Assembly (NCBI RefSeq): GCF_048771995.1
Contig: NC_133060.1
Span: 3,839,501-3,903,500 of the forward strand
Length of the DNA stretch: 64,000 nt
Source: Taeniopygia guttata
Lineage: Eukaryota > Chordata > Aves > Passeriformes > Estrildidae
Direction: 5' to 3'
The notes below the pieces were generated by a model. That model did not search any database. It saw only the letters and a program-made list of their open reading frames with translations, and was not told the origin of the DNA. This document shows positions 2,790 to 62,160 of this stretch, one piece after another; positions within the stretch are counted from its first letter, which is position 1, and every line of letters begins with the position of its first letter. The translations under genes and the position numbers were made by a program.

Positions 2790-3124
2790 ACACAGCCAGG
2801 GCGCCGGGAGGAGGAGGAGGAGGAAGAGGAGGAGAAGAAGGGATGAACAAGAAGAAGAGGGATGAGGACGCAAAAGACGACGAGGAAGAGAAAGGATTCA
2901 GCAAAAAAAGAAGTAGCCACAGGAGGAGAAGGAGGATAGAGGAGGCGGAGAAGAGGAAGGGAAGAGGGGCAGGAGGAGGGGCAGGAAAAGGAGGAGCCAC
3001 AATCTCCTTTGTAACTCGTTGTAAACTCGTTGGAGCTGCGGCACCCCCGACCCGGGAGCGTCGGTCCGACCCGGGAGCATCGGTCCGGCCCGGGAGCATC
3101 GGTCCCCCCCTCCGCATCCCGCAG
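2790..3124 (+). other. 5' noncoding exon region of zinc-finger gene A
   Basis: A purine-rich block (GAGGAGGAGG and variants, 2,808-2,990) is followed by three 22-bp repeats containing GACCCGGGAGCATCGGTCC (3,050-3,105) and then CGCATCCCGCAG before GTGACG at 3,125. The same GA-rich block plus CATCCC(A/G)CAG/GTGAC donor precedes zinc-finger gene B (donor at 14,373) and several pseudogenes of the family, so I infer a shared 5' noncoding exon spliced to the coding exon at 4,310. The transcription start is not visible. On the other strand the block reads as CTC/CTT-rich, leader-like sequence. Confidence 0.55.
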
Positions 3125-3267
3125 GTGACGGGGGAGGGGGAGCTCGCCGCAGATAGCACGGGGGGTTCCTGGCAGAGTTTTTCTGGGAGGGGGATCTTTG
3201 GATCTTCCGGGAATCCAAAACTGAGCCGGAAATGCCCCTTGCGAGGACAGCGGCGGGTCCCCGGGAG

Positions 3268-7984: not shown

Positions 7985-8572
7985 AGCGCTCAGCCCGTGG
8001 TGACTCCCCAGTGTCCAGGCAGACCTGCAGCGGTGCCCAGCGCTGCCCACTTGCAGCCCCCTCGGCCCCAGCGCCCCCCGCCAGGGGAATTTGGGGAGGG
8101 GAGAGGTGGGGGGCGCCCAGGCCGGGCCCAGCCCTGCCTGGTCACGGCCGATGCCGCCCGCGCTGCTCCGGACTGGTCCGGACTGGTCCAGACTGGGGCT
8201 CCCAGGGCCGCTCTGGGCACCCCCCCACTGCACAGCGCGGCTGCTTTGGGGCTGGCGGCACCGCCCGGCGCTGGGGATGGGACAGCGGGGGCTGTGCTGG
8301 TGGCACTGGGATGGGACAGCTGGGGCTGCACTGGTGGCACTGGGATGGACAGCTGGGGCCGTGCTGGTGGCACTGGGATGGGACAGCTGGGGCTGCACTG
8401 GTGGCACTGGGATGAGACAGCTGGGGCTGCACTGGTGGCACTGGGGCCGCATTGGTGGCACTGGTAGCACTGGGGCTGCACTGGTGGCACTGGGAGCACT
8501 GGGACTGCACTGGTGGCACTGGGAGCACCCCCGGCTGTGGGCCCGGAGCTCTCGGGTGACCGGGAGGTGGAA
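7985..8572 (+). pseudogene. MHC class II beta promoter and leader exon, broken
   Basis: On the + strand, 7,985-8,105 parallels the sequence upstream of the intact class II beta gene. GGTGACTCCCCAGT is followed by CCCAGCGCCCCCCGCCAGGG and GAATTTGGGGAGGG at nearly identical spacing. The Y-box partner is lost. The start codon region (near 8,140) is altered. The end of the exon survives: the frame ...ALVALGAPPAVGPELS stops in phase 1 before GTGACC at 8,571, just as the intact gene ends ...ADAELS in phase 1 before GTGAGC. Between the two ends about 280 bp of 34-bp minisatellite has expanded inside the leader. No exon 2 follows; the next recognisable element is a zinc-finger pseudogene. Confidence 0.7.
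8246..8527 (+). repeat. 34-bp minisatellite inside a class II beta leader
   Basis: Units of the form CTGGTGGCACTGGGATGGGA plus CAGCTGGGGCTGCA run about six to eight times, with shortened variants at the 3' end. The core CTGGTGGCACTGG matches the leader core of the intact gene (CTGGCGGCACTGGTGCTGCT), so the array probably grew from leader-coding sequence. Confidence 0.8.
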
Positions 8573-12603: not shown

Positions 12604-13790
12604 TTCCCACATTCTTCACACTTGTAAGGCTATTCCCCGTGTGCCGGTGCTGGTGAGTGATGAATGCAGACAGAAGAAGAGAATTTCCAGAGCCTGGAGC
12701 TGGGTGAGAGGTAGACGAGAATCACCAGAGGATGATGCAGAGCGGCTTCCCAACGGAGTGCGCCAGCTGTTCCTGTCCAACTCCACTGCGGAATGCCATT
12801 CTGGAGGTGGCAATGAAGCGATATGCGGAATAAATAAATAGACTCCACAACTCGAGGTAGTTATGAAGTGGGTATGTATGGGAGCGCCCGGCACAAGTGA
12901 GATAACTCCGAAATCTTGTGTCCCGAGCTGAAGTCTGCCCCCCGACTTTATTCACAAGGGTGTTCCATATGCAATACATTACACAACTTTTCTATGCATA
13001 TTCAACCCCTGGCCCCGCCTGTCTTCGCTTCTCATGCGAAATAGGTCCACGCCCTTCTGGGCATGCGTAGTTTTTTGTGGGGGCTTTTATGGGGGTCCCT
13101 GGTGGTCTTTGAGCTTCAGATCATCCTCTTCCTCTGCATTGAACTTTTGAACTCTTCTCCTGTGCGCTTGCGCTTTTGGTCCTTTGCTCTCCTATCTGGA
13201 TAAGTTCATCATCCTTGACATGTTGGAGACAGAGGGGCTTCCTTGTCTGAAGTCTTGGCATTCTTGGTCCTTTCCGGTATTTGTCTTTTTGCAAGAAGCT
13301 TTAGAGATCTTTGTTTTTCTTTCCTATGCCTTTCTGTGCAGAGGTTTCTTAAAATTCAACACATGATTCTACAAACATGATACGTTCATTTTTGATATAT
13401 TCATTTTTGATACATTCTTTTTTTATACATTTATTTTTGATACATTCATTTTGTTAGTTCAAGTGATCTCTGGAAAATCTTTTGTTTCAGCAACTTGGCC
13501 TTTCCCGTCTGCTGGAACCCCCTCTGTGGGCAGGGACACAGGTCATGGCATGCCCCCCATCGCAGCTACTTCCAGCACCCCACAGCCAGCTGGCAGCTCA
13601 GGGGGCCATGCCGGACCCCCCTTCCCACTCCCCTCTGCCCACGGCCACTGCAGCTCCGGCTGCTGGCTGGGGGGAGCCCCTCAGGAGCCCTCCAGCGAGG
13701 ATCCGCCTTCCCAGAGCTGCCGGGAAGCGCTCCAGGGAATGCGTAAGGGAGACACGAAGGGACCCCCTTTGGGAAGCGCTCACCCGCTGT
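12604..13790 (-). pseudogene. MHC class II beta exon 2 fused to zinc-finger tail, LTR-split
   Basis: On the - strand, class II beta intron 1-like sequence (13,790-13,525) ends TGCCCACAGAG. Exon 2 starts at 13,521 as GFQQTGKAK, matching GVFQEMVKS of the intact gene. A 676-bp LTR interrupts at 13,489. Exon 2 resumes at 12,813 with one extra base that shifts the frame, and its resemblance ends after about 100 nt. By 12,680 the text is that of a zinc-finger tail (TACAAGTGTGAAGAATGTGG, then GGTTCAGAGCATCTCAGATC). The junction of class II beta exon 2 with finger sequence is also present at 22,879-23,140, so the fusion predates the duplication. Confidence 0.75.
12814..13489 (-). mobile_element. Solo LTR, 676 bp, 4-bp duplication GCAA
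   Basis: The ends, read on the - strand, are TGAAAC and CGCTTCA. The flanking duplication GCAA lies at 12,810-12,813 and 13,490-13,493. It carries a - strand AATAAAGTC polyadenylation signal and a cluster of TTTTTGATACATTCA-type 15-bp repeats near one end. It is almost the exact reverse complement of 39,579-40,255. A 4-bp duplication is usual for class I (gammaretrovirus-like) elements. It sits inside a dead class II beta exon 2. Confidence 0.9.
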
Positions 13791-13856
13791 GCCACCTTCC
13801 CTCTGCCACTCCTTCCGCACCGTCCCCCCAGACCCCATCTCGGCTCGGGCTGACCC

Positions 13857-14040: not shown

Positions 14041-14084
14041 GCTGCTCTGCTCCGTCCCCGGCCGGGCGGGTGGGCCGGACCGCG

Positions 14085-14372
14085 GGGAGCTGAGGGCAGC
14101 GGGCAGAGGAAGAGGAGGCGCCGGAAAAGGAGGAGAAGCAGGAAAAGGAGGAGAAGCAGGAAGGCGAGGAGGGCGAGCGGCCTTCATTCGTGTTCCTGCC
14201 TTGGGTTTATCTCTCGCACGGGAGGCCAGCTCCTGCCGCTGCCCGGTCTTCCCAAAGGAGAAGAAACGTAGAAGGAAGAGGAAGAGGAAGAAGAGGAAAT
14301 TCGCGTGTCCACCGCGCCCTGTGTCCGCAGCCCTCCCGGCCCGTGGAGCACCTGCCCCGCCGCATCCCACAG
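14085..14372 (+). other. 5' noncoding exon region of zinc-finger gene B
   Basis: GA-rich sequence (GAAGAGGAGGCGCCGGAAAA and similar) runs into CGCATCCCACAG, followed by the donor GTGACC at 14,373. It is the homologue of 2,790-3,124 (gene A), and its complement parallels the leader-like exons at 57,897-58,070 and 22,334-22,412. I infer a promoter and 5' untranslated exon for gene B that overlaps the antisense of a class II beta-type leader. No TATA box is obvious and the region is GC-rich. Confidence 0.55.
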
Positions 14373-15037
14373 GTGACCGGGAGGGAGAACTTGCCCCAGA
14401 TCTCTTGGGCGTCCCCGGGAGGTGTTTTTTCCGGGGGGGATCACGGCCGTGCCTGTGGGCAGAGCCCAGGATACTGCGGGGAGGATGCGGGATCCCGCAC
14501 GCCGCACGGAGATCGCCCGGCGGGGTTAAGGGACATCAGTTCTGGCTGCCCCTGGCGTGGGAGAGCAGAGAGAGGCGATGCCGGGTTGGAATACCCCCGG
14601 CGGACTGGAAAGGAGGAAGCACAGAGTTAACGGGGAGGGCAGGATCCCCTCGACCTGAAACGGGGGACTGGGAGGGGAGACGTCCCCGGCATTCTGGGGT
14701 TAGGCGAGCCTGAAGAGTGGGAACCCTGGGACCCCCAGCAGTCGAAACAGAGACTGAGAGGAGAAGGGACCCCTAGGATCTCTGAAACTTCCAGCAAGCC
14801 TCAGCGGGACCCAGGAGAGGGAAGACCTCCAGGACCTTAAAAGGGAGAGACTAGCGAGGGGGGAATCTTGGAGGGCTCCTTTGCTGAATCTTAATATTTT
14901 GGAAAGGTTTTTATTCTGCTTCATGGTGTTTTGGAGGTTCTCATGGACACAAGATTCCTGGTGATTTCTAGAAATGGACTTGGGCAGGAGGAACCTCCAG
15001 TTCAGCACACTCACACGTTGCTTTCCCCCAAACCCAG

Positions 15038-16133
15038 GGTTTGTCATTCCTAAAGCTTGGCTGAATGGAGGAGGAGGCTGTGAGGAAGAGGAAGATACCC
15101 CAGGACCCCCAGGCAGGTGAGGAGGAAGTCAGTGCCCCTTTCCCCCTCTCTCCTGCTCCACCTCCCAGCCCAGCACGCCCCGGCTGCAGGACAGCCCCGC
15201 TGCCGGTGCCCTCCTGCCGGGGACGCTCTGGGGGGATCTCCTTGCCCTTCCCTGTGGCACGGAGGCAAATCCCATCCTCTCCTTGTCCTTCCTCCCCCAG
15301 GCAATGAGCTGGAGGCAGCGATCAAGGAGGAGCAATCCTCCTGGCAGAACATTGCAGAAGAGGCCGTTTTGAGCACTTCCACAGCACAGGAATCCCATGG
15401 GGAAGAGAAGCCCCAGAGATCCCGCACGAGGAGGGGGTGCAAACCCAGCCCAGAGTGCTTCAAGGAGGAAAGAGACCCCCTGTGCCAGGAAGGTGGCCAG
15501 AGCTTCAGCTGGAACTCGGAGCTGGTGAAGAAGCCTCACAATGGGGAGAAGTCCCACAAATGTTTGGAATGTGGGAAGAGCTTCAGCCGGAGCTTCCACC
15601 TCCTCCGCCACCAGATGATCCACACAGGGGAACGCCCCTATGAGTGCTTGGAATGTGGGAAGAGCTTTAGCCGGAGCTCTTGTCTGATCCGCCATCAGGT
15701 AATTCACACGGGGGAACGGCCCTACAAGTGCAAGGAGTGTGGGAAAAGCTTCAGTGACCGCTCCAACCTCCTCACCCACCAGCGCCTGCACTCCAGGGAA
15801 CGGCCCTTTGAGTGTGGGGAGTGTGGGAAGAGCTTCAGCATCAGCTCTGACTTGATCCAGCACCAGAAGATCCACAGTGGAGAACGGCCCTACGAGTGTC
15901 CTGAGTGTGCAAAGAGGTTTCGGACCAGCTCCCATCTCCTTCTGCATCAACGGATTCACACGGATGAGAGGCCCTTCCGCTGCCCCGACTGCAGGAAGGG
16001 CTTCAAACGCAACTTCCACCTGACCCTGCACCGACGCATCCACACTGGGGAGAAGCCCTATGAATGTCCCGAGTGTGGGAAGAGCTTCTCCTCCAGCTCT
16101 GGCTTGGCCCGACACCAACAGTCCCACTTGTAA
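15038..16133 (+). CDS. C2H2 zinc-finger protein B, 7 fingers, intact
   Basis: A paralogue of gene A and likely a nuclear DNA-binding protein. The coding exon begins after CCCAG at 15,038 and has its start at 15,065 ([11 protein letters not shown]...). The donor GT is at 15,117 and the intron is only 184 nt, ending CCCCCAG at 15,300. The last exon, 15,301-16,133, gives an acidic spacer, one degenerate finger and seven canonical C2H2 fingers, ending SHL and TAA. The spliced product is 294 aa. Helix contact residues (-1,2,3,6) are RFHR, RSCR, DSNT, ISDQ, TSHL, RFHL, SSGR, quite unlike those of gene A. The intron is not a multiple of three, so retention would change the frame. No KRAB domain is present. 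The two genes share exon phase (1), exon sizes and the noncoding 5' exon. Confidence 0.87.
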
Positions 16134-19085: not shown

Positions 19086-22245
<3,160 letters not shown>

Positions 22246-22270
<25 letters not shown>

Positions 22271-22412
22271 GGGATGTGAGGAGCCAATCCTCCTGGGGCA
22301 AGGGGCTGCAGTTGCAGCAAATGGTGGATGCACATGATGCCTCCTCTCCCTGCTCTTCCTCCTCTTGCTCATCCTCTTCGTCCTCCTTTGTCTGTGGGCC
22401 AGGGGCTCTCAG
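22246..22412 (+). pseudogene. Leader-like exon, antisense to zinc-finger 5' exon
   Basis: On the + strand, ATG at 22,334 opens 26 codons ending GQGLS in phase 1 before GTCAGC at 22,413. That is the same phase and ending pattern (xELSG) as exon 1 of the intact class II beta gene. A second frame of the same stretch reads as a strongly hydrophobic leader (LSLLFLLLLILFVLLC), so a frameshift probably separated the hydrophobic core from the exon end. On the - strand the same bases are the GA-rich 5' exon of the zinc-finger pseudogene. It may be a class II beta leader or merely the complement of that exon; the phase-1 ending favours the former. Confidence 0.5.
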
Positions 22413-23140
22413 GTCAGCTGGACATGATGGGAGCTGGACATGATGGGAAAACAGCAGAAGAGGGGGGAAATACAGGAGGGATCCCTAAAAGGAGCAAGAG
22501 AGAGGGTAGGCCACCCCCAAACTGACCAGAGGGGATCTGGGGTTGTGGAGGACAATGGGACAGGGGTGGGAGAGGTGGTATAAGAGGTGGTGGGTCAGAG
22601 CAAACGTGTTCTTATGGGGGTCCCTTCGTGTTCCTCATCACTTAATCCCCAGAGTGGTTCCCGGGGACTCTGAGGGGGTAGATCCACTCTAGGGGTTTCC
22701 CAACCCTCCATCCACTGGGGGATTCCCTCCACCCAGCAGCCAGTGCTGTGGTGGCCATGTGGCAGAGTGGGGTGTGAAAAAGGGGGCAGGGGTGGCCTAT
22801 GAAGCTCCCAACCTGCTGTGGGGTGCGGGGGGTTGCTGGGGATTGAGTTGCCACTGATCTGCCTCTCTGCCCATAGAGGGGTGTTCCAGTGGATGGAAAA
22901 GGCTGAGTGTCACCTCCTGAATGACCCTGAGCAGGTGAGGTCTGTGGACAGGAACATCCAAAACAAGCTCAGACTCTATGGCAGGGACACCTCCCTCCAC
23001 CTTCACTACCAACCAGCACCAGCACAAAGGGAATGGCCCTACAAGCGTGGGAAATGAGCAAAGAGGTTTCAGAGCAGCTCGGATTTCATGAAGCATCAGT
23101 GGACGTACTCAAGGAAGAGCCCGTCCACCTTTCCCCAAGC
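22413..23140 (+). pseudogene. MHC class II beta intron 1, exon 2 start, zinc-finger tail chimera
   Basis: The intron-like stretch 22,413-22,878 ends CCCATAGAG. Exon 2 follows from 22,879: GVFQWMEKAECHLLNDPEQV, then VDRNIQNKL, an in-frame match to GVFQEMVKSECHFINGTQRV and RFIYN. After about 120 nt the class II match ends, and from 23,020 the text is finger-like (AAGCGTGGGAAATGAGCAAA, then TTTCAGAGCAGCTCGGATTT). There is a stop at 23,056. This is the same fusion, at the same place, as the - strand copy at 12,604-13,521, making the two an inverted pair. Exons 3-5 are absent. Confidence 0.78.
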
Positions 23141-30229: not shown

Positions 30230-31830
30230 GCAGGAGGAGGAAGGGGAGGAGGAATAGCAGGACATTCATGGATCCACTGCTCCCTGTATCTTCAGCCCTC
30301 CCCAGCCTGGGAGCATCATCCCCCCTCACCTCCCCCAGGTGACTGGGGGAGGGGAAGCTGGCCTCAAATATAGGGGGAGAGTGGGGGACTGTCTCTTAGT
30401 ATTTGTTTTTTATGAAGCATTAACTGGCTTTTGCAGGACTCCAGAGCTGATCTGCAAATGTCCCTCGGGGGATACTGGGTTCCAGAGGTGACATTTGTCT
30501 GGGGACTCCTGGTGGCTGCTGCCGACCAAGCCATGGTGGTTGGCAGGGGATGTAGAACCCTTGGAGCTACGCGAAGATCAGTCAGGACCAGGGTAGGGGG
30601 GCCGGGAACACCATTTCTGGGGACTCCTCAGGAGAGCCAGGGTTGGGGGAAGGCCAGGACCCCTGGAGAGGGGAAAACTGAGAGAGGCAATACTGGAACT
30701 GAGGGACCCCTGACAGCCCAGAGAGGGGCAAAGCTCAGTGAGGCGTAATCTGGGAAGAGAGATTCAGGAGGGCTGAACCCAGGGATTCCCAGGTCCAACA
30801 GCAGTCTTGAAAGTGAGCAACCCTGGAGATGGGGATCCCCAAAATATAGGAGACCCCCAGCAGGCCAGACAGAGGGAAACTAAAGTGGAGACAACAGACT
30901 AGGGTACCCAGGCAGGTGAGGAGGAAGTCACTGCCCCTTTCTCCCTCTCCTCTGCTCCATCTCCCAGACCAGCACCGCCCCTGGCTGCAGGACAACTCTG
31001 GTGCAAACACTGTCCTGCCAGGGATGAACTTGGGGGATGTCCTTCCCCTTCCTTCTTGCATGGAGACAAATCCCCTCCCTCCCTCCCCAGACACTGACAG
31101 AGACCAGGGAGGACAAATCCCTGCACCAGAACCTCATAGAAGAGGCTGTTTTACGTGACTCCACAGCACAGGAATACAATGGGGAGGAAAAGCTACAGAG
31201 GTATCCTGTGAGGAGGGTCTCCAAACACAGCCCACAGTGCTCCAAGGAGGAAAGACACAGACAGCCAAGCTTCACCCAGACCTCTGAGCTGCTGGTCCTT
31301 GAGTGGTTTCACACTGAGATGTGCTACAGGTGCTTGGAATGTGGGAAGAGCTTCAGATGGAGCTGCTACCTGATCCGGCACCAAAAGATTCCCACAGGGG
31401 AATGGCCCAAGAAATGCTTGGAATGTGGGAAGAGCTTTAGCCAGAGCTCCTGTCTGATCCACCATCAGGTAATTCACACAGGAGAACGGCCCTATAGGTG
31501 TAGGGAATGTGTGAGCAGCTTCAGTGACCATTCCAACCTCCTCAGCCACCAGCGCCTGCACTCCAGGGAATGGGTCTACAAGTGTGGGAAGTGCAGGAAG
31601 AGCTTCAGCCAGAGCTCCCACCTGATCCACCACCAGAATATCCACACTGGGGAATAGCCCTCAGAGTGTCCTGACTGTGGGAAAAGCTTCACCCAGAGCT
31701 CTACCTGGACCTTACACCAATGGATTCACTGCAAAGGGAACTCCTGTGAGTGCCCCAAGTGTGGGAAGGGCTTCAAATGCTGTTCCAACTCCATTCCCCA
31801 TTGGAGGGTTACCCGTTGGATGATCCACTG
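30230..31830 (+). pseudogene. C2H2 zinc-finger pseudogene, 5 to 6 fingers
   Basis: A GA-rich 5' exon relic (30,230-30,350) ends CTCCCCCAG/GTGACT. The start exon (ending 30,914 before GTGAGG) has lost its ATG and contains TAG. The last exon opens at 31,091 but is shifted relative to the family frame. Within its own frame (31,037-31,657) it encodes the TETRED spacer and four to five fingers, the first of which has lost a histidine (HQKIPT). It stops at TAG 31,655. One further decayed finger and the 3' flank follow to 31,830. Without a start and with the frame change it should not make protein, although the finger frame is still open. Confidence 0.78.
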
Positions 31831-32224: not shown

Positions 32225-33275
32225 AAAGAAAGTAAGAGTAGAAAGATACACAGGCACCAGCCCTGGATCCAGCAACAAAAATAGATTGTTGCAATGTCCT
32301 TGTCCTCGGTCTAAGTGATGGTCCCAGGAAGGATCCTTTGGGGGTTGGGAAAGCTCCAGAAACACCAATTTCTGTGGGTCAATAGGGATTTAGGTTTAGG
32401 TGAACGCCCAGGTGCCTCCCCTAAAGGGAGTTTTACACTGCCTGATGTCACACTGTGGATCCCGGGGCGCTCTGGGGGCTCTGATGGTTTATGGCCCCTC
32501 CTAAGATGTGGTCCCGCCTCTCCCAGCAGTGCAGCTGAGGCAGGTATGGCCCGTGAAAAGGGATGAAAACCTCCAGGCCTCTGTGTGAATGTCGTGGGCC
32601 TTCTGCAGGGGAGTTTCCAGAGCTGAGCCAGTTGTGTAAGGGAGGGCATTGCCTGCTCCAAAGCCCTGTCCCACCTGGCAGCATCTCTTTCTGATCAGCC
32701 TCTTCCCTTCCCTGGCTCCCAGCCCGGCTCATCGCCTCCCCTCCGGGGCTGGGTGTTCCCCCCTCTGCCCCTGGGCACCTCCTGTGCCCGTGGCCAGCAA
32801 AGCCCCGCTGCTTTTGCCACTGGTTTGAGCCTTTAACCCGGGACATTTCAGTCCTCAAAAGCCGAGAGGGATGGATGATGCCTCAAAACAACTCCATCCC
32901 ACTGAAAATGGCTCAACTCCACCTCAAAACAACTCAATCCCACCTCAGAATTTTGGCGTATCTCCTGAGCCCAAATTACTCCCACTTGTGGATGTTCCTT
33001 GTCCCCAGATTTCACCCAGTTGTTGCCATCAAGGAAGTGGCAGTGGGCTTTTCCCCCAAAATGGAACACACTGTGTGGGAAAGGAGACAGGTGAGGGGGT
33101 GCCTCCCCTCACCCCCCAACAGATGCCAGCACCCCACATCAGGCTGGGGGCTCAAGGGACCACCCTGGATCCCCCATTCCCACCCCCCTCTGCCCCACGG
33201 CCACCACAGCACTGGTTGTTGGGTGGGGTCACCCCCACTGTGACCCCTCCAGGGAGGGACGGGGGTTTGGGGACC
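32225..33275. repeat. Inverted repeat, arm A
   Basis: This about 1.05-kb block is the reverse complement of 45,575-46,640. Over the 200 bp I compared base by base (33,062-33,262) there are only three or four differences. Identity falls off left of about 32,290. The arm contains the dead class II beta exon 2 piece at its right end and about 650 bp of unassigned sequence. The two arms face each other across 12.3 kb that includes the only complete class II beta gene. Confidence 0.9.
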
Positions 33276-33400
33276 CACCCAGGAAGCTTCTGCTTACACC
33301 CTCCATCCCCCCCAGAACCCTGGGGAACAGCCCAAGAGATCCAGTGATGGGGACATGAAGGGACTCCCAGGGGAACTCCTTTGCCACTGTCCCCCCTCTC
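32985..33400 (-). pseudogene. MHC class II beta exon 2 fragment and intron 1, arm A
   Basis: On the - strand, TCCCACACAG at 33,080-33,071 is followed by exon 2: VFHFGGKAHCHFLDGNNWVK, then a short run resembling the start of the beta-1 domain (compare VFQEMVKSECHFINGTQRVR). The exon begins one base short of the normal phase. The match ends after about 85 nt, where the 20-bp degenerate repeat takes over. Intron 1-like text extends to about 33,400. Confidence 0.75.
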
Positions 33401-33639
33401 AAACACCTTTCCCATCTTCCCTGTGCTGCTCTCCCTCTCACCCAGGAGTTCCTTGCCCACAGCCGAGATGTGCTCCCAGCACCCAGAGTGGAGTGACACG
33501 CAGGGGACTCACAGGGCTCCCCGTTCCTGACCCACCCTGGGGCCGATTCTCCCCCTTCCCATCACAGTTTCCCTGTGGGCTCCCCCAAAATCTCTCCACA
33601 CAGCTCGCCAGTAAATGGGATTGCCGTGAACTGGGAAGC

Positions 33640-33645
33640 TTTATT
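33640..33645 (-). terminator. Poly(A) signal of the class II beta gene
   Basis: AATAAA on the - strand, 144 bp past the stop codon of the intact gene, followed by a C/A-rich stretch where cleavage would fall (about 33,620). Confidence 0.75.
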
Positions 33646-33788
33646 GGGAACACTGGGAGCAGGCGGGCAGGGGCAGAGTGACAGCAGGGCTGGGGGGACA
33701 CACGACCCCCCAAAATCAGTGTGGGGATGGAGCGGGGGGGTTCTGGCCGGGCCCGAGGCCGCGGGGAGCGGCTGCGGCTGCTGGTGGC

Positions 33789-36283
33789 TCAGGAGCTCTG
33801 CGGGCAGAGAAAAGGGGGTGACACCGGGCTGGGGGCCCCGGGGGAGCACACACACTCTGGGGGAGGGAGACACGACCCCCGGGGGCCCCCCTGACCTTCT
33901 TGTGCAGGTAGAAGCCGAGCCCCAGCCCCAGGAAGACGAAGCCCAACACGAAGCCCCCAATCCCTGTCAGCATCTTGCTGTGGGCAGTGTCCGGCAGCAT
34001 CTCTGGGGGGTCCGCAGAGATCAGGACCCCCCAAAACCTCTCACAGACACCCCAAGCCCCTCCAAGCACCCTCACACCCCTCCAACCCACCCAAGACCCC
34101 ATGAGATCTCTTTCCACTCCCCATCCAACCTCCCTAATTACCACCCAAGTCCCCTCCCCATCCCTCCAGGACCCTAAACCCCCTCCCAGTTGACACCCAT
34201 TTCCCAATGATCCCCCAAACGTTTTCCCAGTCCCTTCCCAGTCCCACCAGGACTCACCAACATCACTGTCAGTAGATTGAAGCACATTCAACTCCCATCC
34301 CAGCCCCCTTTTACATCCCCAAACTGCTTCCAGCCCCTCCAGCTCCATCAGACACCCTTCCAGTTACATCCAGCACCACCAGGATGTTTCCTCTCAGTAG
34401 CCACCAGGAAACCCCTAACTGCATCCCAGTCTTCCCAGTATCCTCCAAACCTCTTCTCTGCCCTCCCAGGCCATCCAAACCCTTCTCCCAGTTACGCCCT
34501 GCCTCCCTCAAACTTCCTCCCAATTACTCCCAGTTACTACCAACTCCATTCTCAGTCTCCCCAGTCCCACTCCCTGTTCCCCAGTGCTGTGGGGGCCAGG
34601 CTGTACCCCAGTGCCGGCTCAGGGGGTGCTCCAGGCTGACGTGCTCCACCTGGCAGGTGTAGGTGAGCCCGGCCCGGGTTGGGGTTTCCAGCAGCACCAG
34701 GAGCTGGTAGGTCCAGTCCCCGCTGGGGAAAATGTCGGTGGCCACCACAGAGAGCTCCTGCTGGCCCTGGAACCACCTCACCTGGATTTGGGCAGGGTAG
34801 AAATCCAGCACGGAGCAGAGCAGGCGGCCGGGGCCGGGTTGGGAGCTCGAGGGCACCAGCGAGATGGACACGCTGGGGGACACTGGGAGAGAGCGGGGAC
34901 ACTGGAATAAGATCCAGGTAAAATGGGAGACACGGGGAGGGGAGGGGGGAAGGGGTGGGGGGGCTCGGGTAACATTGAGAGGGATTGGGGAGGGACTAAA
35001 AGGGGGATGGAGAATGCTGGGAGGGCACTGGGAGAGAGGATGGAAGTCTGGGAGTGGACTAAGGACTGGGAATGGAATGGGAATGAACAGAGAGGGACTG
35101 GGAAGGAAGGGACTCCCTGGCACTGGGAGGGATTTCAGTGGCACTGGGAGGAACTGGGAATGAAGTGCGCGGCACCGGGAGGAACTGGGAATGAAGTGCG
35201 TGGCACTGGGAGGAACTGGGAATGAAGTGCGCGGCACCGGGAGGAACTGGGAATGAAGTGCGCGGCACCGGGAGGAACTGGGAATGAAGTGCGCGGCACT
35301 GGGAGGAACTGGGAATGAAGTGCGCGGCACTGGGAGGCCGAGTCCAGTGCGGAGCACTCGGCGCTGCGGGTCTGCCTGGCAACTGATGAGTCATCAGAGG
35401 GGCGCGATCTGATTGGCTGGCAGGCGGCAGCACCACGCCAGGCTGAGATGGACAGCCGGGAGGCACTGGGAGAGACTGGGATGGACTGGGAGAGATAGGG
35501 AAAGGTCCGGGGGCACTGCGGGGTGAGCAAGAGGCCACGGGGATGGGCACAGGAAGGGCTGACACGTATGGGGTTATTCCAAGGGAGGTTTTGAGGGGCT
35601 CTAGGGTCATTGCCGCTGTCCCGCGCTCACCTCTGCGCTCCGCGAGGAACGAGGTGGACAACTCGTAGTTGTGCCGGCAGTGTCTGTCCACCGCAGCCCG
35701 TCTGTATTCCATCCATTCCAGGTTGCTGTTCCAGTACCCGGCAACCTGCTCCCCATACGGCGTGTCCCCTACAAAGTGCCCCACGTCGCTGTCGAAGTGC
35801 ACGTACTGCTCCCGGTTGTAGATGAACCTCTTCACGAACCTCACCCGCTGGGTGCCGTTAATGAAGTGACACTCGGACTTAACCATCTCCTGGAACACTC
35901 CTGTGTGTGCAGGACACAAGTCAGAGGGTGCCCCGCCAGCAGCCCCCAGCACCCCGCAGAAAACCACGAGCTCAGAGGCCCACCCCGGACACCCACTCTG
36001 TACCCCTTTTCCCCACGTGCAACCCTTCGTGGGCTTTCTTCCCGCGGTCCCTCTGCCTCTTTTCCACTCTCCTCCCATAACTCCCCAGTCAGCAGCACCA
36101 CCCCCCACATCACTTTGAGGGTCCCACCTTCCCCTTGTCCCTGCACGCCCCACCGTTCCCACCCTCCCAACACTTCCCTTTCCGCCCCTCCTGCTCACCC
36201 GAGAGCTCCGCGTCCGCCCCTGAGGCGGCTCCCAGCAGCACCAGTGCCGCCAGCAGGGCCCGAGCTGCCGCCACACGGCCCAT
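33789..36283 (-). CDS. MHC class II beta chain, complete
   Basis: A type I membrane glycoprotein that pairs with a class II alpha chain on antigen-presenting cells and presents exogenous peptides to CD4 T cells. Exon 1, 36,283-36,199: signal peptide MGRVAAARALLAALVLLGAA... Exon 2, 35,900-35,631 (270 nt): beta-1 domain with cysteines in SECHF and DRHCRHNYE and an NGT glycosylation site. Exon 3, 34,882-34,607 (276 nt): Ig-like beta-2 domain with LLCSVLDFYP and YTCQVEHVSLE. Exon 4, 34,002-33,896: connecting peptide and glycine-rich membrane helix (GIGGFVLGFVFLGLGLGF) ending HKK. Exon 5, 33,797-33,789: Ser-Ser-stop. All introns are GT-AG and all junctions keep phase, giving 248 aa. Exon 3 is 6 nt shorter than the 282 nt usual for the family: two residues are absent between QQELS and VVATD. 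Intron 2 holds a second S-X-Y-like module and a 31-bp minisatellite. It is probably functional. The alpha chain is not in the window. Confidence 0.93.
35115..35336. repeat. 31-bp minisatellite in class II beta intron 2
   Basis: About six to seven copies of a unit written GGAACTGGGAATGAAGTGCG plus CGGCAC(T/C)GGGA, almost identical to each other. It abuts the promoter-like module at 35,340-35,430. On the - strand it gives a false Ser/Pro-rich frame that continues exon 3. Confidence 0.9.
35340..35430 (+). promoter_or_regulatory. Second class II S-X-Y-like module, in intron 2
   Basis: X1 CCTGGCAACTGATG (35,375-35,388), X2 TGAGTCATCAG (35,387-35,397) and Y CTGATTGGCT (35,409-35,418). The start of X1 to the start of Y is 34 bp, the spacing of classical MHC class II promoters bound by RFX, CREB/ATF and NF-Y with CIITA. 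The module reads on the + strand, antisense to the host gene. Flanking text (GAGTCCAGTGCGGAGCACTC, then GGCGCTGCGGG) is homologous to the gene's own upstream region at 36,363-36,395, so this is a duplicated promoter segment. Confidence 0.75.
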
Positions 36284-36393
36284 GGCCAGCGCCGGGCAGG
36301 GTCTGACTCCTCCTCCCTCCCCAAATTCCCCTGGCGGGGGGCGCTGGGGCGAGGGCGGGGGTGGAGTCCAGGTGAGGAGCTCTGGGCGCTGCG

Positions 36394-36443
36394 GGACCGC
36401 CGGCAACTGGGGAGTCATCAGCGCCGCGGGCTCTGATTGAACC
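36394..36443 (+). promoter_or_regulatory. Class II S-X-Y-like promoter module, reversed
   Basis: S-like GGACC (36,394), X1 GCCGGCAACTGGGG (36,399-36,412), X2 GAGTCATCAG (36,412-36,421) and Y CTGATTG (36,433-36,439), with the same 34-bp X1-Y spacing. It lies about 110-160 bp upstream of the start codon of the - strand class II beta gene, as expected for its promoter, but the motifs read on the + strand, pointing away from that gene. Conserved CCCAGCGCCCCCCGCCAGGG and GAATTTGGGGAGGG elements lie between the module and the start. A bidirectional promoter or a reversed module are both possible. Confidence 0.7.
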
Positions 36444-36714
36444 GATATTGTTTGTACCTCTCTGAGAGGCTGAGGAGAGGTGGGGGAGGTGGAAGAAGAA
36501 CCGGGAGCGATCCCGCCCCGAGCACCGGCACAGGGGCAACAGACCCATCCTGGGCACAGGGAGGGAATTTATTACCAACCAAACCACGGCAGCACAAGGA
36601 AAAGGGAAAGAAATCTCTCCAACAACTCCTCCCCACCCAACAGGGATCACCAGGAACCAGGACCAAGGATTACCAGGGCTGTGCCCAACGAGGGTCACCG
36701 GGGATCATCCAACA

Positions 36715-45574: not shown

Positions 45575-46640
45575 TTGGGTCCCAAAGCCCCTGTCCCTCC
45601 CTGGAGGGGTCACAGTGGGGGTGACCCCACCCAGCAACCAGTGCTGTGGTGGCCGTGGGGCAGAGGGGGGTGGGAATGGGGGATCCAGGGTGGTCCCTTG
45701 AGCCCCCAGCCTGATGTGGGGTGCTGGCATCTGTTGGGGGGTGAGGGGAGGCATCCCCTCACCTGTCTCCTTTCCCACACAGTGTGTTCCATTTTGGGGG
45801 AAAAGCCCACTGTCACTTCCTTGATGGCAACAACTGGGTGAAATTTGTGGACAAGGAACATCCACAAGTGGGAGTAATTTGGGCTCAGGAGATACGCCAA
45901 AATTCTGAGGTGGGATTGAGTTGTTTTGAGGTGGAGTTGAGCCATTTTCAGTGGGATGGAGTTGTTCTGAGGCATCATCCATCCCTCTCGGCTGTTGGGG
46001 ACTGAAATGTCCCGGGTTAAAGGCTCAAACCAGTGGCAAAAGCAGCGGGGCTTTGCTGGCCACGGGCACAGGAGGTGCCCAGGGGCAGAGGGGGAACACC
46101 CAGCCCCGGAGGGGAGGGGATGAGCCGGGCTGGGAGCCAGGGAAGGGAAGAGGCTGATCAGAAAGAGATGCTGCCAGGTGGGACAGGGCTTTGGATCAGG
46201 CAATGCCCTCCCTTACACAACTGGCTCAGCTCTGGAAACTCCCCTGCAGAAGGCCCACCACATTCACACAGAGGCCTGGAGGTTTTCATCCCTTTACATG
46301 GCCAAACCTGCCTCAGCTGCACTGCTGGGAGAGGCGGGACCACATCTTGGAAGGGGCCATAAACCATCAGAGCCCCCCAGAGCGCCCAGGATCCACAGTG
46401 TGACATCAGGCAGTGTAAAACTCCCTTTAGGGGAGGCACCTGGGCGTTCACCTAAACCTAAATCCGTATTGACCCACAGAAATTGGTGTTTCTGGAGCTT
46501 TCCCAACCCCCAAGGCATCCTTCCTGGGACCATCACTTAGACCAAGGACAAGGACATGGTAATAATCAAACCAAATCTTTCGCTGCTGGATCCAGGGCTG
46601 GTGACTTTATTTTTCTACTTTGATGCTTGCTTTCTTTTCC
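45575..46640. repeat. Inverted repeat, arm B
   Basis: Reverse complement of 32,225-33,275 (see arm A). The match starts at about 45,575 (GACCCAACGACACTG diverges left of it), is near-perfect to about 46,550, then becomes patchy to 46,640. It holds the dead class II beta exon 2 piece at its left end. Confidence 0.9.
45620..45870 (+). pseudogene. MHC class II beta exon 2 fragment and intron 1, arm B
   Basis: TTCCCACACAG at 45,772-45,782 is followed by exon 2 from 45,783: VFHFGGKAHCHFLDGNNWVK, then FVDKE. Compared with arm A (..VKSGDKE) this copy keeps the more normal FVDKE. The match ends after about 85 nt. The phase at the acceptor is off by one, as in arm A. Confidence 0.75.
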
Positions 46641-48837: not shown

Positions 48838-49740
48838 GCCTGGTGCTGGATCAGGTTGGAGCTCCGGCTGAAGCCCTTCCCACACTCCAAGCACTTGTGG
48901 AGCTTCTCCCAAGCTTCAGGCTCCTCCACCAGCTCCGAACTCTGTCTGGATCTCTGGCCTTCCCAGCACAGGGAAGGTGTTTCTTCCTTGGAGCTCTCTG
49001 GGCTGGATTTGCAACCTCTCTTTGCAGGAATCTCCAGGGCTTTTCCTCTTCCTCCATCTGGCCAAGGCTTGAGAATGACAAATCCTGGTTTGGGGCAAAA
49101 AACAAGGAGTTGAGCGCCTTGGGGTGGGGTTTCCCCTGAACAAGTCCACCTCAGGCAGTCACCAGATGATTTGTGTCCATAAAAATCTCCAAAGCACCAA
49201 GATTCAGCCCCCAAAAAACTTCTCATAGGAGGGGTCTCTCTTGTCTCTCCTTTTTGGGTTCTGGGGGTTTCCCTTCCCTGGGCTGATGGGGGTCCCATGG
49301 CTTCTGGCATGGCCCATTCTAGGGTCCTGCTCATGGATGATCCAAGGGTTTTGAGGGTCCAGTGATCCCTTTTCCCCCGGCTCTCTGCTCCAGGGTTCCA
49401 CAGATCCCACAGATCCCCCCGCTCCAGGCCCTTCTGCCCTGCCCTTCAGGCTGCCAGGGGTCCTCCAGCTCTGGGTGAGTTCTCCTCTCTTCCCACCCCA
49501 AGGGTCTTGGGGTTTCCCTCCACTGCTCTCCTGGGGCATCACAAAGACCCATGTCCTCCCCTGACCAGTACCTGGACCCCAAATATCCCCCAAAAGGGGG
49601 AACTGCAACTCAGCTTTGGGGTCCTGCAAGATCCAAAATCCCCCCCAAAATACCAAGCCCTCACAGTGACCCACAAAGTTATTTGGGTCTTAAGTCAACA
49701 ATCTGCAAACTCCAAACAGTCCCCACTAAAAAAACTCAGT
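48838..49740 (-). pseudogene. C2H2 zinc-finger pseudogene (-), start exon fused to last exon
   Basis: Intron 1-like text (49,720-49,090) ends before the start exon at 49,060, MEEEEKPWRFL. The frame passes directly from the first codons of the start exon to the EEKPxR part of the last exon with no intron: a deletion from within exon 2 to within exon 3 at a shared GAAGAGGAAAAG stretch. It continues through spacer text and one finger ([18 protein letters not shown] in a nearby frame), then ends at 48,838, where the remaining fingers are missing. There are frame changes. Confidence 0.75.
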
Positions 49741-50040
49741 TGAGAACTCCCTGATATATCTGGGGCGACCTCCCCCTCCCTGGCCACCTGCAGGATGGAA
49801 CCTCGTACTTCTCCTGTCTGCCTTCTCTTCCTCCCATGCCTCCTCCCTGCAAACCCCAGACCTCTCTTTCATACTCCCCTCTGCCCAACATCTGCTGCAG
49901 CACCAGCTGATGGATGGGGGGAACAACCCCCAAAAATCCCCCAGGGATGGACAAGAGTGTTGGGGATCCCCCCCAGTGCAGATCCATCCCCTCCTAGAGT
50001 CCTGGAGAATCACACCAGGGATGATGTGATGGGGACATAA
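49741..50040 (+). pseudogene. Leader-like exon and class II beta intron 1 relic
   Basis: Antisense to a zinc-finger 5' exon (donor complement near 49,787). ATG at 49,797 opens a frame MEPRTSPVCLLFLPCLL that looks like a leader, but no GAGCTCTC-type exon end is seen. 49,860-50,000 resembles class II beta intron 1 (CACTCCCCTCTGCCCAACAT, then CTGATGGATGGGGGGAACA). No exon 2 follows; the next block is unassigned, then an ERV. Confidence 0.45.
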
Positions 50041-50339
50041 AGAGACCCCCTACAATTTCTTGCTGTACCCCCTCCCCTAATCCCTCTCTCCTTTCCCTTT
50101 CCATCATCTGTTCTAATCCCAGCTCTGCCTAGCTGAGTTTGGGGGTGATCAACCCCCTTCTTGCACTCACTCAAGGAATCCTAAATGTCCTTTTATGACT
50201 CCTCTCCCCCTTTCCCTTCATGCTGAAAGGAATAAATGAATGTGTCTTTACAAACAGATTATATGAATCAGACTGGAGAAAGGGCCAGGAACTTGTAGAT
50301 GAGGAACTGACAGTAGAAATCATCAGTTTCAGAAAAAAG
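50041..50339. other. Spacer before the ERV copy
   Basis: Pyrimidine-rich text with AATAAATGAATG at 50,231, which may be the end of an LTR or unit. No gene is seen. Confidence 0.35.
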
Positions 50340-54875: not shown

Positions 54876-57890
<3,015 letters not shown>

Positions 57891-57896
57891 TGCGGG

Positions 57897-58070
57897 ATGG
57901 GGGGGCTGATGCTCCCGGTGCGAAGCGGCTGCGGATCCAGCGAGCGAAGGATGCGCTGGTGCCTCCCCCGGCTGCTCCTCCTCCTGCCCCTGCTCCTCCT
58001 CCATCCCTCCTCTTCCTCCCGCTCCTCCTCCTCCTCCTCCATCCCTCGGCTGCCGGCCAGGAGCTCTCGG
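57897..58070 (+). pseudogene. Leader-like exon with class II beta exon 1 end, antisense to zinc-finger exon
   Basis: The + strand shows a Leu-rich leader (RLLLLLPLLLLHP in one frame, LLFLPLLLLLLHPSAAGQELS in another) and ends CAGGAGCTCTCGG before GTGAGC at 58,071. That is the exact ending and phase-1 frame (ELS-G) of exon 1 of the intact class II beta gene. ATG codons (57,897, 57,909, 57,951) are not in frame with the ELS end, so a frameshift within the CTC repeats has broken it. The complementary strand is the 5' noncoding exon of the zinc-finger pseudogene. No class II exon 2 follows. Confidence 0.6.
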
Positions 58071-58224
58071 GTGAGCGGGGCTTGGACGGGACCCGTGGAA
58101 AGGGGTGGGAGAGGGGGATGGGGGGAGGTGGGACGGGGGGAAGGGGTTCTCAGTGAGGGCTCCCAGTTAACTTCAGGACCCCAATTTCCCTCCCTGTACT
58201 CCCAGCCCCTCCCGGTGCTGTGGG

Positions 58225-58503
58225 GCCGTGCCCCAGTGCCGGCTCAGGGGGGCTCCAGGCTGACCTGTTCCAGGTAGATGGGAGCTGCAGGTGACCCCAG
58301 GCTGGGGGGGTTCCAGCAGCACCAGGAGCTGGTGGGTCCAGTCCCGTTGGGGACCACGTTGGTGGCCACCACAGAGAGCTCCTGCTGGCCCTGGAACCAC
58401 CTCAGCTGGATTTGGGCAGGGTAGAAACCCATAATGGGGCAGAGCAAGTGGCCAGGATTGGGCTGGGAGCTCGAGGGCAGCAGCGAGATGGACACGCTGG
58501 GGT
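58225..58503 (-). pseudogene. MHC class II beta exon 3 (beta-2 domain), dead
   Basis: On the - strand, VSISLLPSSSQPNPGHLLCP, IMGFYPAQIQLRWFQGQQEL and SVVATNVVPNG follow the beta-2 domain of the intact gene closely. One base is missing in the NGDWT region, so the frame shifts, and the second cysteine region (YTCQVEH) is degraded to CSSHLPGTGQ-type text before LSRHWG at the end. It shares the two-residue gap after QQELS with the intact gene. It faces away from the neighbouring leader-like exon, so the two are not one gene. No exon 2 or 4 adjoins. Confidence 0.85.
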
Positions 58504-59369
58504 GGGCAGAGGGCTTGGGGGCTCCCACCAGTGCGAATCTGCGACGACCCCCACCCCAAGCCACAGGAAATGGCTCAATGGAAGGAGTGCTGCTAGACAG
58601 GGAACCACCCTTCTTCAATCCCAGCCGCACCTTTCCCTCCCCTCTCCCCCCCTTTCTTGTTCCCCAAATCCACAGACCCCTTCCAACACAATTTGGAACT
58701 TTCCAGCCCCCTGCCCCACTCTTTGGAGGTCCCAGCCCCCTCTATTCCCCCATTCTCTTGCCCCTTCCCAACCATCCTGTAAATCCCCAACCCCCTCTTC
58801 CGTGCTTGGGTTTGGGGGTTCCAGGCCACTCCTGCTCAGTCACACCTCCTCTTTCTCTCAATTCAGATCCCTCCTGGCAGCTTTTTCCTGGGAGGAATCC
58901 CTGAGTTTTGGGACTTTTGGGATGCAGTTTTGGAGGGGGACAGCTCTGTCCAGCTTTCCCCTCCCCGTTGTGGCCCCTCAGCTGCCCCCAAAACCCTGGT
59001 GGTGCTGGGATTTCCCTCTGGGGACAAGGACGTTCATCCCCTTCCAGGAGCCCAATGCCCGGCTGGGGCTCCAGGTCAGGGGTCCTTGAGCAGCTGCCCC
59101 AGAACCTCCACCAGGGTCTCCCAGCGCAGCCGGAGCCGCTCGGCCTGGGCTCCCCAAAGGCCTCAGCAAGGCCCAAGTCCCTCCCAGGAACCCTCAACTC
59201 CCTCAAACCCAGCATCCCCCGCATCCCCTGCCAAGTTCCCCCCATGGCACCGGCCATGTCCATGTCCCCACATGTCACTGGCCATGTCCCACCATGTCCT
59301 CACCCATGGCTGTCTCCCCACCATGTTTCCATCCCTGTCATTGTCCCCCATGTCTCCATCCATGCCTGT
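58504..59369. other. Spacer with a possible terminal exon and CCATGTCC repeat
   Basis: On the - strand, 59,145-59,085 reads AQAERLRLRWETLVEVLGQL, then LKDP and stop, after a CCCAG acceptor-like site. The helical, charged text looks like the last exon of a coding gene, but I do not recognise it. 59,237-59,372 (+) is an irregular array of CCATGTCC/CCATGTCACTG words. Nothing else is recognised. Confidence 0.3.
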
Positions 59370-59960: not shown

Positions 59961-62160
59961 CAAAACAACTCCAGTGCTCTAATACACCCTGTATAACATA
60001 GACAGTGACAGCACATGTTGGAGTGGGCAGAGGGATTCTTTATTCGCTGTTTCCCTTTGCAGCTTTAACAAATTTCTGTTGCAGAGTCAGAGATCCTCAC
60101 CATGGGCTCTGCCTTTATCTGTACAAATTCCATCAGTGGAAGCAGGCAGAGCTTGGGGTGAGGGGCAGAGGGAATGAGCCCAATTCCTGCCTCAGGCAAG
60201 AGACATTGTTCCCACTTTGCCCCAGCAGTTTAATTTGCATTTCTAAAGCTCCTCTGCTGGCTGCCTGGCTTCTCTTCCAGGGAAGCCATTCTGTGGCCAA
60301 AAGGGACTTTTAATAATACAATATTAACTGTTTACCAGTTTAAAGGTCACCTTTAAAGCTCTTCTGGTTTTTAAAAATGAAGGCTAAAGGTGAATATCGA
60401 AGAACCTGTACCAAAATTTCGCCATCACAACAGCTATGCACACACATATACAAAAAAATCCAAAGCAATAAAGATTTTTTTCTACTTCTCCTACATCTAA
60501 AAACTGACTCACACCGCTGACCCAACACCCCTAGTCTTAACTGGCACTATAAAAGTAGGATTATCAAGAAAACAACATTCTAATAGTGTAATCTTGTCAC
60601 CGAAACTGCAAGAAGAATCAAAATTCTTCAACAACATTTTTAGTGTTAGAGAGTCAAGGCATTACATGATTCTGGTCAGGATATGCAGCAGAACTAATTT
60701 CATCCACTCATAGCCCAAGCTGTGCAGAGAAAATCATTCCATGACATGTGAGTTTCCCTAGATTTATCCTTTAACTTTTTACAGTCCAAAATCCTTTGAA
60801 ATTATTTATTGTTCATTGCTTCCAAGTTGCCGGGTTCTTTTTTAGCATTTGGTTTCCTATTAGACCCCGATTTCTTCACCTCTGATGTTAACTATGCCCA
60901 CATTCCTGGATTTCCTTCTCAGCCTTTTGCAGACCAGGTGTCTGCAGCTTTGGCAGTGTCTGGGGTAGGTGTTGGTTGCTGTTTACTGCTGGGGTTGATG
61001 TTTTGCTTCCTGTCGTTATCTTTGTGGGTGTCTTTTGGGCCATTCCCAGTGTGTTGAGGTGTTAAACTCATCTCCATTGAGGTTGTAACATCCCTTGAAA
61101 AAAACCTTTAAAATTTATTTCGCCAAGGCAAAGGAAAACAAGTCTAAGTAGAAAAATAAGATTTTTTTTTTAATTTGATCTTAGTATATTTTCCAGCAAT
61201 GGAATCCCAGCCAGCGCAGTGTGTGAGTGTAAGTGAGAGCCAGAGTGGAATTGTCCCGTGCTCTTGCCCAGCAGCTGTGGCAGGGCAGCCCAGAGAGCGC
61301 TGAAGCTGCAGCAGTGGCAGCAAGGGCTGTCCCCGGTGCTGGAGCTGCCAAAGGAGGGTGGCCAGGCCGAGGATTTCAGCAGAGGATGTGTGGGCAGGCC
61401 CAGGGCCTTGCCCCGCTGTGGAGCCCTGGCTGCTGCTGCGCTGCCTTCAGTGCAGCTCAGTGGGGGCCTCCCATCCTCCTGCTGCAGGTGGGAAGTGCAA
61501 ATCTCCGGGGCTGCAGAGACCTGGAGCCGAGGCTGAGGGGTCCCCCCGTGCTCAGCTGTGCTGGCGGCTGTTTCTGGCCTCGGGGCCACTTGGCACGGGC
61601 CACGCCACTTGGCCACCAGTGGTGCTGCTCTGCACTCCTTAGGCAGGAGCCGATGTCCTGCTGGGATGTTGGCAACAGCAAAGTGCCAAGGCAGGCTCTG
61701 TGCCAGCCCAGCTTCCTGGGGGAGAGATTGCACCAGAGACAGGATTCTGGCCACAGACTGCTTTAAATGTGCATCCCTTATCTGCACCCTGCACTAGGTG
61801 GAGAATTCCCAGGGTAAGGAATAACCGAGCACTGCTCATCCATTTAGAGTCTCTTTTGCTTGTCAAAGCTTTAACTTGGTGGCAGACTTGAGCAACACAA
61901 GATGCTCCTGCTGTCAGTTTTCAGGCCTCAGTTCCCATTGAAGCTGTGGCTGTACAATTCTGCAGACAATGAGGCCACTCTGGCCACTGGGTGAAACATT
62001 TTAGCAGAAGAATTCCTTTGGCTTGGCCCTGTTTAATATCCACATACGATTAAAATTCTTTTTCCCTGTCTAGGAGAGCCGGGGCAGCAGCCTCAGTTAA
62101 ACTTCATTATAACACTTGAAAATTCTGTTTTCCTCATGTCCAGCTATCCATTTTCTTGAC
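59961..62160 (-). mobile_element. ERV copy 2: middle part, largely unrecognisable
   Basis: 60,340-60,560 matches, in reverse complement, 51,730-51,900 of copy 1 (TGCTTTGGATTTTTTTG, then AGAGCTTTAAAGGTGACC). No reverse transcriptase or integrase motif was found in the remainder, and 61,230-61,660 is GC-rich and may be a separate insertion. The 205-codon - strand frame at 61,170-61,787 has no recognisable domain. Confidence 0.5.

What the first reader, a model, noticed from the sequence alone, without database searches (positions are those of the whole stretch)
57889..58070. Zinc-finger 5' exon is the antisense of a class II beta-type leader exon
Seen: the GA-rich 5' exon of the - strand zinc-finger unit and the Leu-rich leader on the + strand are the same bases. 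The leader ends GAGCTCTCGG/GTGAGC exactly as exon 1 of the intact class II beta gene does. The same overlap is seen at 22,334-22,412 (phase-1 frame intact) and, less clearly, at 14,085-14,372 and 49,741-49,870. Inference: an ancestral locus had the two genes head to head with overlapping first exons, so each duplication carried both. Sense-antisense pairing could couple an immune gene to a zinc-finger regulator.
Basis: partly seen in the sequence, partly recalled or inferred. Interest (0 to 1): 0.75.

Follow-up and report, generated by a model that had tools for sequence, protein, structure and literature searches.

The report
Fossil junction of two immune-region genes
In a songbird-like immune-gene region, the start of a zinc-finger gene sits back to back on a broken remnant of an MHC class II gene, and duplications seem to have copied that join; it looks like a molecular fossil rather than a working sense-antisense gene pair.

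Summary
Partly confirmed. A profile built from three class II beta exon-1 ends that have no zinc-finger overlap finds 58043-58079 (+) as its best hit outside its own members (E 1.4e-5; 0 of 200 local shuffles). A weaker hit, 22391-22426 (+), stands out only by position (5 of 200 shuffles window-wide, 0 of 200 in the six antisense zones). So the last 22-28 nt of a class II beta leader exon, with its donor, lie opposite the zinc-finger first exon in two units. But the "Leu-rich leader" is not a class II leader: it is 87-89% pyrimidine, the complement of a GA block also present in zinc-finger copies where no class II DNA was found; genuine leaders here are 39-56% pyrimidine. The claimed overlaps at 14,085-14,372 and 49,741-49,870 show no exon-1 homology. 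In 0 of 6 units are both genes intact. At the focal unit the finger frame and the conserved exon-1 donor are broken, the leader ATG is out of phase, and no class II promoter or exon 2 was found. Best reading: a junction between a zinc-finger CpG-rich first exon and a 5'-truncated class II beta pseudogene, copied by duplication. Coupled sense-antisense regulation is unsupported here.

The parts
57890..58070 (-). Focal unit (u12): zinc-finger first exon (5' limit not determined); GA-rich part about 57958-58042, conserved 3' part about 57890-57950
   Evidence: Profile of exon 1/intron 1 start finds 57807-57952 (-), E 8.4e-37 (training member); donor position reads CAG|GGGACC instead of the family's CAG|GT
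58043..58070 (+). 3' end of a class II beta leader exon (reads ..PSAAGQELS|G), antisense to the zinc-finger first exon
   Evidence: nhmmer 58043-58079, 21.2 bits, E 1.4e-5; 0 of 200 shuffles; frame
58071..58076 (+). class II beta exon-1 splice donor GTGAGC
   Evidence: exact 16-mer shared with intact gene 36193-36208
57700..58099 (.). CpG-rich block (o/e 0.60-1.19 per 100 bp against 0.24 for the whole window), probable CpG-island promoter (inferred)
58211..58502 (-). class II beta exon 3 (beta-2/Ig domain) relic, inverted relative to the exon-1 remnant, frameshifted
   Evidence: 83.5% to 34580-34878; frames
57020..57090 (-). zinc-finger exon 2 (MEEEEAVRKM..) of the focal unit, approximate limits
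   Evidence: translation; 70-74% to six other places around this exon
55355..55979 (-). zinc-finger array of the focal unit, with stops and a frame change: pseudogene
22267..22412 (-). Unit u5: zinc-finger first exon (5' limit not determined)
   Evidence: profile 22181-22329 (-), E 3.3e-39 (training member); donor CAG|GTGAC
22391..22412 (+). Unit u5: class II beta exon-1 end, in phase with an ATG at 22334
   Evidence: 11.1 bits, E 0.02; 5 of 200 shuffles window-wide, 0 of 200 in the six zones; frame
22715..22964 (+). Unit u5: class II beta intron-1 tail and exon-2 start (pseudogene, GVFQWMEKAECHLLNDPEQV..)
   Evidence: 70.5% over 149 bp to the intact gene; 72.4% to two other relics; frames
14307..14372 (+). 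Unit u3: zinc-finger first exon (3' part)
   Evidence: profile 14307-14457 (+), E 7e-36 (training member); donor CAG|GTGACC
13493..13767 (-). Unit u3: class II beta intron-1 tail and truncated exon-2 start, head to head with the zinc-finger gene; exon-1 end not recognisable
   Evidence: 70.5% to 35871-35994; 72.4% and 70% pieces to u5; no exon-1 hit in 13600-14400
15084..16133 (+). Unit u3: zinc-finger open frame, 7 fingers
3061..3124 (+). Unit u1: zinc-finger first exon, 3' part (GA block 2805-3000); no class II match found upstream
   Evidence: training member; searches list no class II match in 1-2800
30272..30338 (+). Unit u8: zinc-finger first exon; no class II match found upstream
   Evidence: E 1.1e-14, (not a training member)
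49788..49816 (-). Unit u11: zinc-finger first exon end; class II intron 1 beside it at 49853-50164 is on the SAME strand
   Evidence: E 2.2e-13 for 49719-49798, (not a training member)
33640..36283 (-). Apparently intact class II beta gene (exon 1 36199-36283, exon 2 35631-35900, exon 3 about 34607-34882, later exons read by eye)
   Evidence: Pfam MHC_II_beta E 4e-32 and C1-set E 2.4e-17 on exons 2 and 3; best PDB hits with exon 2 are MHC class II beta chains; sequence and frames
33442..33492 (-). Class II beta exon-1 end of another relic, no zinc-finger exon 1 found beside it (control copy)
8500..8555 (+). Class II beta exon-1 end of a relic with its promoter upstream (7987-8106), no zinc-finger exon 1 found opposite it (control copy; ..VALGAPPAVGPELS|G)

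Best explanation
The feature is a fossil head-to-head junction. In an ancestor, the 5' end of a C2H2 zinc-finger gene (GA-rich, CpG-rich first exon) became joined to a class II beta gene that had lost its promoter and the first part of its leader exon. The join lies inside the leader exon, so the last 22-28 nt of class II exon 1, its donor and the following intron lie opposite or just upstream of the zinc-finger first exon. Segmental duplication and inversion, as expected in a songbird MHC class II region, copied the join (units at 22.4, 58.0 and, with exon 1 eroded, 14.1 kb). Shown: homology at the exon-1 end (strong at 58.0 kb, weaker at 22.4 kb), head-to-head intron 1/exon 2 in two units, no class II promoter found there, decay of both genes at the focal site. 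Inferred: a single origin of the join, its direction (zinc-finger end joined to a truncated class II gene), and that the CpG block is the zinc-finger promoter. The Leu-rich leader is the complement of a GA repeat.
For: Exon-1 profile from zinc-finger-free copies hits 58043-58079 and 22391-22426. The focal and 22.4-kb units align through the join into intron 1 (score 69; 500 shuffles, maximum 38; blastn with dust on, 76.5% over 85 bp, E 1.9e-10; the pyrimidine stretch contributes to both). The focal exon-1 end also beats 500 of 500 shuffles against the intact copy and the 8.5-kb copy. The 14-kb and 22-kb units share intron 1 and exon 2. GA blocks occur in u1 and u8, where no class II DNA was found. 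Three class II exon-1 copies without zinc-finger overlap have leaders of 39-56% pyrimidine. The class II promoter profile hits its three training sites only, none in the six units.
Against: The 22.4-kb copy keeps an in-phase ATG through the pyrimidine stretch to the donor, as a real leader would; but pyrimidine tracts rarely contain stops. The 22.4-kb exon-1 end is weak against the intact copy (42 of 500 shuffles). The focal CpG block is preserved, so transcription from it in the germ line, now or recently, is possible. Trees of the class II relics and of the zinc-finger exon 1 do not resolve the order of duplications, so a single origin is not proven; u3 lacks the exon-1 end.
Confidence: 0.72

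Rival explanations
1. An ancestral working pair: class II beta and a zinc-finger gene with overlapping first exons, coupled by a shared promoter or by antisense pairing, duplicated as a unit.
For: Head-to-head class II intron 1/exon 2 and zinc-finger exon 1 in two units, exon-1 end in two; in-phase ATG at 22.4 kb; CpG block spanning the overlap at the focal unit.
Against: 0 of 6 units with both genes intact; class II promoter not found in any of the six units; the leader's first part is not class II sequence; the arrangement was not found at the intact class II gene; one unit has class II intron on the same strand.
Confidence: 0.12
2. The zinc-finger gene captured class II DNA as its own promoter or first-exon sequence, and live copies such as the 14.1-kb unit still start transcription in class II intron 1, making a natural antisense of class II 5' sequence.
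For: The 14.1-kb unit has an open 7-finger frame and a CpG-rich 5' region (13900-14500, o/e 0.81) reaching toward class II intron 1; class II relic head to head with it.
Against: Another unit with an open finger frame (u1, 8 fingers) has the same exon 1 and a CpG block with no class II match found upstream, so class II sequence is not needed. No transcript data.
Confidence: 0.12
3. Chance resemblance created by GA/CT composition.
For: Fits the Leu-rich part and the claimed copies at 14,085-14,372 and 49,741-49,870: their scores against the intact exon 1 are reached by 476 and 417 of 500 shuffles. (The 14-kb copy does align to u5 and u12, 0 and 1 of 500 shuffles, but through the pyrimidine, i.e. 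zinc-finger, part.)
Against: The exon-1 end at 58043-58079 is not GA/CT repeat and beats all 200 local shuffles; exact 16-mer.
Confidence: 0.03

Closest known systems
Zebra finch and red-winged blackbird MHC class II regions (PMC2907588, passages read)
   Same: Multiple class IIB copies and pseudogenes interleaved with many zinc-finger genes; gene duplication and fragmentation
   Different: The passages read do not mention a zinc-finger first exon lying antisense to a class IIB exon 1; 'antisense' and 'promoter' occur 0 times in the text
Long-read bird MHC assemblies (PMC7875000, passages read)
   Same: The zinc finger family was, with PAK1, the commonest other gene found in Passeriformes contigs with many MHC loci; large copy numbers
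   Different: The passages read do not describe the junction; 'head-to-head' and 'promoter' occur 0 times in the text
Bidirectional promoter / head-to-head gene pairs with antisense overlap (general kind; seen only as search listings)
   Same: Divergent 5' ends close together in a CpG-rich block
   Different: Here one partner is a truncated pseudogene, and its own promoter was not found, in each of the three head-to-head units

Membership tests
MHC class II beta gene (the + strand feature at 58,043) | Leader exon homologous to class II beta exon 1, ending in phase 1 with GT donor | tested here: inconclusive
   Only the last 28 nt and the donor match; upstream part does not; ATG frame out of phase
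MHC class II beta gene (the + strand feature at 58,043) | Exons 2 and 3 follow on the same strand | tested here: not met
   No exon 2 found after 58076; exon 3 relic at 58211-58502 is on the opposite strand
MHC class II beta gene (the + strand feature at 58,043) | S-X-Y type promoter upstream | tested here: not met
   Promoter profile hits only its three training sites 36309-36452, 35320-35422 and 7987-8106, apart from one chance-level hit at 61414-61446, E 6.1
MHC-linked passerine C2H2 zinc-finger gene (the - strand unit) | First exon, MEEE exon and finger exon in order on one strand | tested here: met
   57890-58070, 57020-57090, 55355-55979
MHC-linked passerine C2H2 zinc-finger gene (the - strand unit) | Open frame through the fingers | tested here: not met
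   Stops and a frame change at the focal unit
Sense-antisense gene pair with overlapping first exons | Both genes intact and divergent | tested here: not met
   0 of 6 zinc-finger exon-1 units
Sense-antisense gene pair with overlapping first exons | Transcripts from both strands | not testable with these tools

The most novel reading that the evidence does not exclude
A songbird zinc-finger family carries, in some living copies, a first exon or promoter fused to antisense class II beta sequence, so that expressing the zinc-finger gene makes RNA complementary to the 5' end of class II beta transcripts and can tune them in trans.
Probability: 0.06. Interest if true: 0.65.

Novelty: new member of a known kind. 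Interest (0 to 1): 0.3.

Why it matters
It gives a recognisable breakpoint by which copies in a scrambled songbird MHC class II region could be grouped and their duplication order traced, and it warns that the complement of a GA-rich (Glu-coding) repeat can imitate a signal-peptide leader. If a living copy proved to transcribe through the join, it would link a zinc-finger family to MHC class II regulation, which stranded RNA data could test directly.

Tried and rejected
Rejected: pure chance at 58043-58079. Rejected: Leu-rich stretch as true class II leader. Rejected: overlaps claimed at 14,085-14,372 and 49,741-49,870 as exon-1 copies. By eye I thought a degenerate exon-1 end lay near 14,210-14,246 (-); a profile built from five exon-1 ends and run on 13600-14400 did not find it.

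Led nowhere: exact-pattern scans for the zinc-finger exon-1 donor in viral contigs and genome contigs, 0 hits each. Trees of six class II relics/genes and of six zinc-finger exon-1 regions were unresolved apart from the 33-kb/45-kb pair. Paper searches showed nothing on the junction or on inverted avian class II promoters in the rows listed: 0 papers; 3 of 3 listed; 20 of 48; 12 of 12; 4 of 4; 12 of 8,656, badly chosen terms. The window's own genome could not be searched: the tool was busy at all four attempts. The house finch cosmid paper was not held.

Full report
Setting. The window holds one apparently intact class II beta gene on the - strand (exon 2 matches Pfam MHC_II_beta, E 4e-32, exon 3 C1-set, E 2.4e-17; the best solved chains for exon 2 are MHC class II beta chains), several class II relics, and, by my grouping, about a dozen C2H2 zinc-finger units on both strands. 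That fits a passerine MHC class II region: zinc-finger genes near class IIB copies are reported for zebra finch and red-winged blackbird (passages of PMC2907588) and among the commonest other genes in passerine contigs rich in MHC loci (passages of PMC7875000). The bird group is my inference; no call names the species.

The zinc-finger first exon. A profile from four copies found six in the window at E below 0.01: u5 22181-22329 (-), u12 57807-57952 (-), u3 14307-14457 (+), u1 3061-3204 (+), which trained it, and u8 30272-30377 (+) and u11 49719-49798 (-), which did not (E 1.1e-14 and 2.2e-13); five further rows had E 0.29 to 0.93. Five of the six end CAG|GT; the focal copy (u12) reads CAG|GGGACC, so its donor is lost. 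A GA-rich block precedes the conserved part in u1, u3, u5, u8 and u12; u11 was not measured.

The class II side. The 16-mer of the intact exon-1 end and donor recurs exactly at 58061-58076 (+). To avoid circularity I built a profile from three exon-1 ends with no zinc-finger overlap (intact gene; relic at 8.5 kb; relic at 33.4 kb). Apart from its own members it hit best at 58043-58079 (+), 21.2 bits, E 1.4e-5. Next came a repeat of the 8.5-kb member at 8475-8499 (13.9 bits), then 22391-22426 (+) (11.1 bits, E 0.02), then an apparently unrelated 58996-59030 (10.3 bits). Of 200 windows shuffled in 250-bp blocks, 0 reached 21.2 and 5 reached 11.1 (an earlier set: 1 of 20 reached 11.1); within the six zones opposite zinc-finger exon 1, the best shuffle score was 7.0. 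So the focal hit is secure on its own, the 22-kb hit only because of where it lies. Pairwise, the focal exon-1 end beats 500 of 500 shuffles against the intact, the 8.5-kb and the 22-kb copies; the 22-kb copy beats 500 of 500 against the 8.5-kb copy but only 458 of 500 against the intact one.

What is not class II. The match at the focal unit begins at model position 27; the hydrophobic core of the leader is not matched. The Leu-rich parts are 87% and 89% pyrimidine (u12, u5), the three genuine leaders 39%, 46% and 56%, and the GA blocks of u1, u8 and u3 88-90% purine (a second block in u3, 83%). Antisense of GAG/GAA codons reads CTC/TTC, so a Glu-rich repeat gives a Leu-rich strand. At the focal unit the ATG frame ends out of phase with class II exon 2, and the phase-1 frame (ending HPSAAGQELS|G) has no ATG in 57830-58069; at 22.4 kb the frame ending VGQGLS|G does have in-phase ATGs.

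Context of each of the six units. u5: exon-1 end, intron 1, exon-2 start head to head with the zinc-finger gene. u3: intron 1 and a truncated exon-2 start head to head, exon-1 end not recognisable. u12: exon-1 end, weak intron-1 similarity (the piece is 69.7% over 89 bp to the intact gene), then an inverted, frameshifted exon 3. u11: class II intron 1 at 49853-50164 lies on the same strand as the zinc-finger gene. u1 and u8: no class II match found upstream. So a head-to-head class II remnant is seen in 3 of 6 and the exon-1 end in 2 of 6.

State of the genes. Among the six, the finger frame is open throughout in u1 (8 fingers) and u3 (7 fingers); u12 and u5 are broken, u8 keeps 3 of 4 finger motifs in one frame, u11 has none in the stretch read. 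Splicing of u1 and u3 was not tested. No unit has an intact class II partner. The class II promoter profile hits only its three training sites: the intact gene, a second copy in its intron 2, and the 8.5-kb relic. CpG observed/expected is 0.59 (u12), 0.81 (u3) and 0.74 (u1) against 0.12, 0.05 and 0.11 (u5, u8, u11) and 0.24 for the window; at u12 the block covers 57700-58099. My inference is that it is the zinc-finger promoter, still or recently unmethylated in the germ line at u1, u3 and u12.

Conclusion. The best account is a duplicated fossil junction between a zinc-finger 5' end and a 5'-truncated class II gene. A single origin of the join is inferred; the trees do not resolve it. A working sense-antisense pair is not excluded elsewhere in the genome or in relatives, but nothing here supports it. 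In the paper listings seen (two searches showed only part of their hits) and in the passages of four papers I saw no description of this junction; most subscription papers are not held.

Noticed in passing
36400-36439 and 35376-35415: The X-box/Y-box pair upstream of the intact class II beta gene reads in canonical X-then-Y order (order recalled) on the strand opposite to the gene, i.e. the module is inverted; a second copy lies in intron 2 in the same orientation. Whether this is usual for birds was not found in the papers searched.
   Followed up: partly
32853-33277 and 45576-46000: A class II relic stretch (intron 1/exon 2 and beyond) of at least 425 bp is 97.4% identical between these two places in opposite orientation, a recent duplication; the query ended at 46000, so it may run further. 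At 45 kb the similarity stops before exon 1.
   Followed up: partly
8274-8524: A minisatellite (GCACTGGTGGCACTGGGA-like units) appears to have grown inside the leader exon of the 8.5-kb class II relic.
   Followed up: no
13840-14060: A tandem array of ~20-bp CpG-rich units (GAACGGAGCGGGGGGACCCC-like) lies in the class II intron-1 relic just upstream of zinc-finger unit u3 (by eye).
   Followed up: no
56320-56806: A GGGA/GGAA microsatellite of about 490 bp lies between zinc-finger exon 2 and the finger exon of the focal unit (by eye).
   Followed up: no
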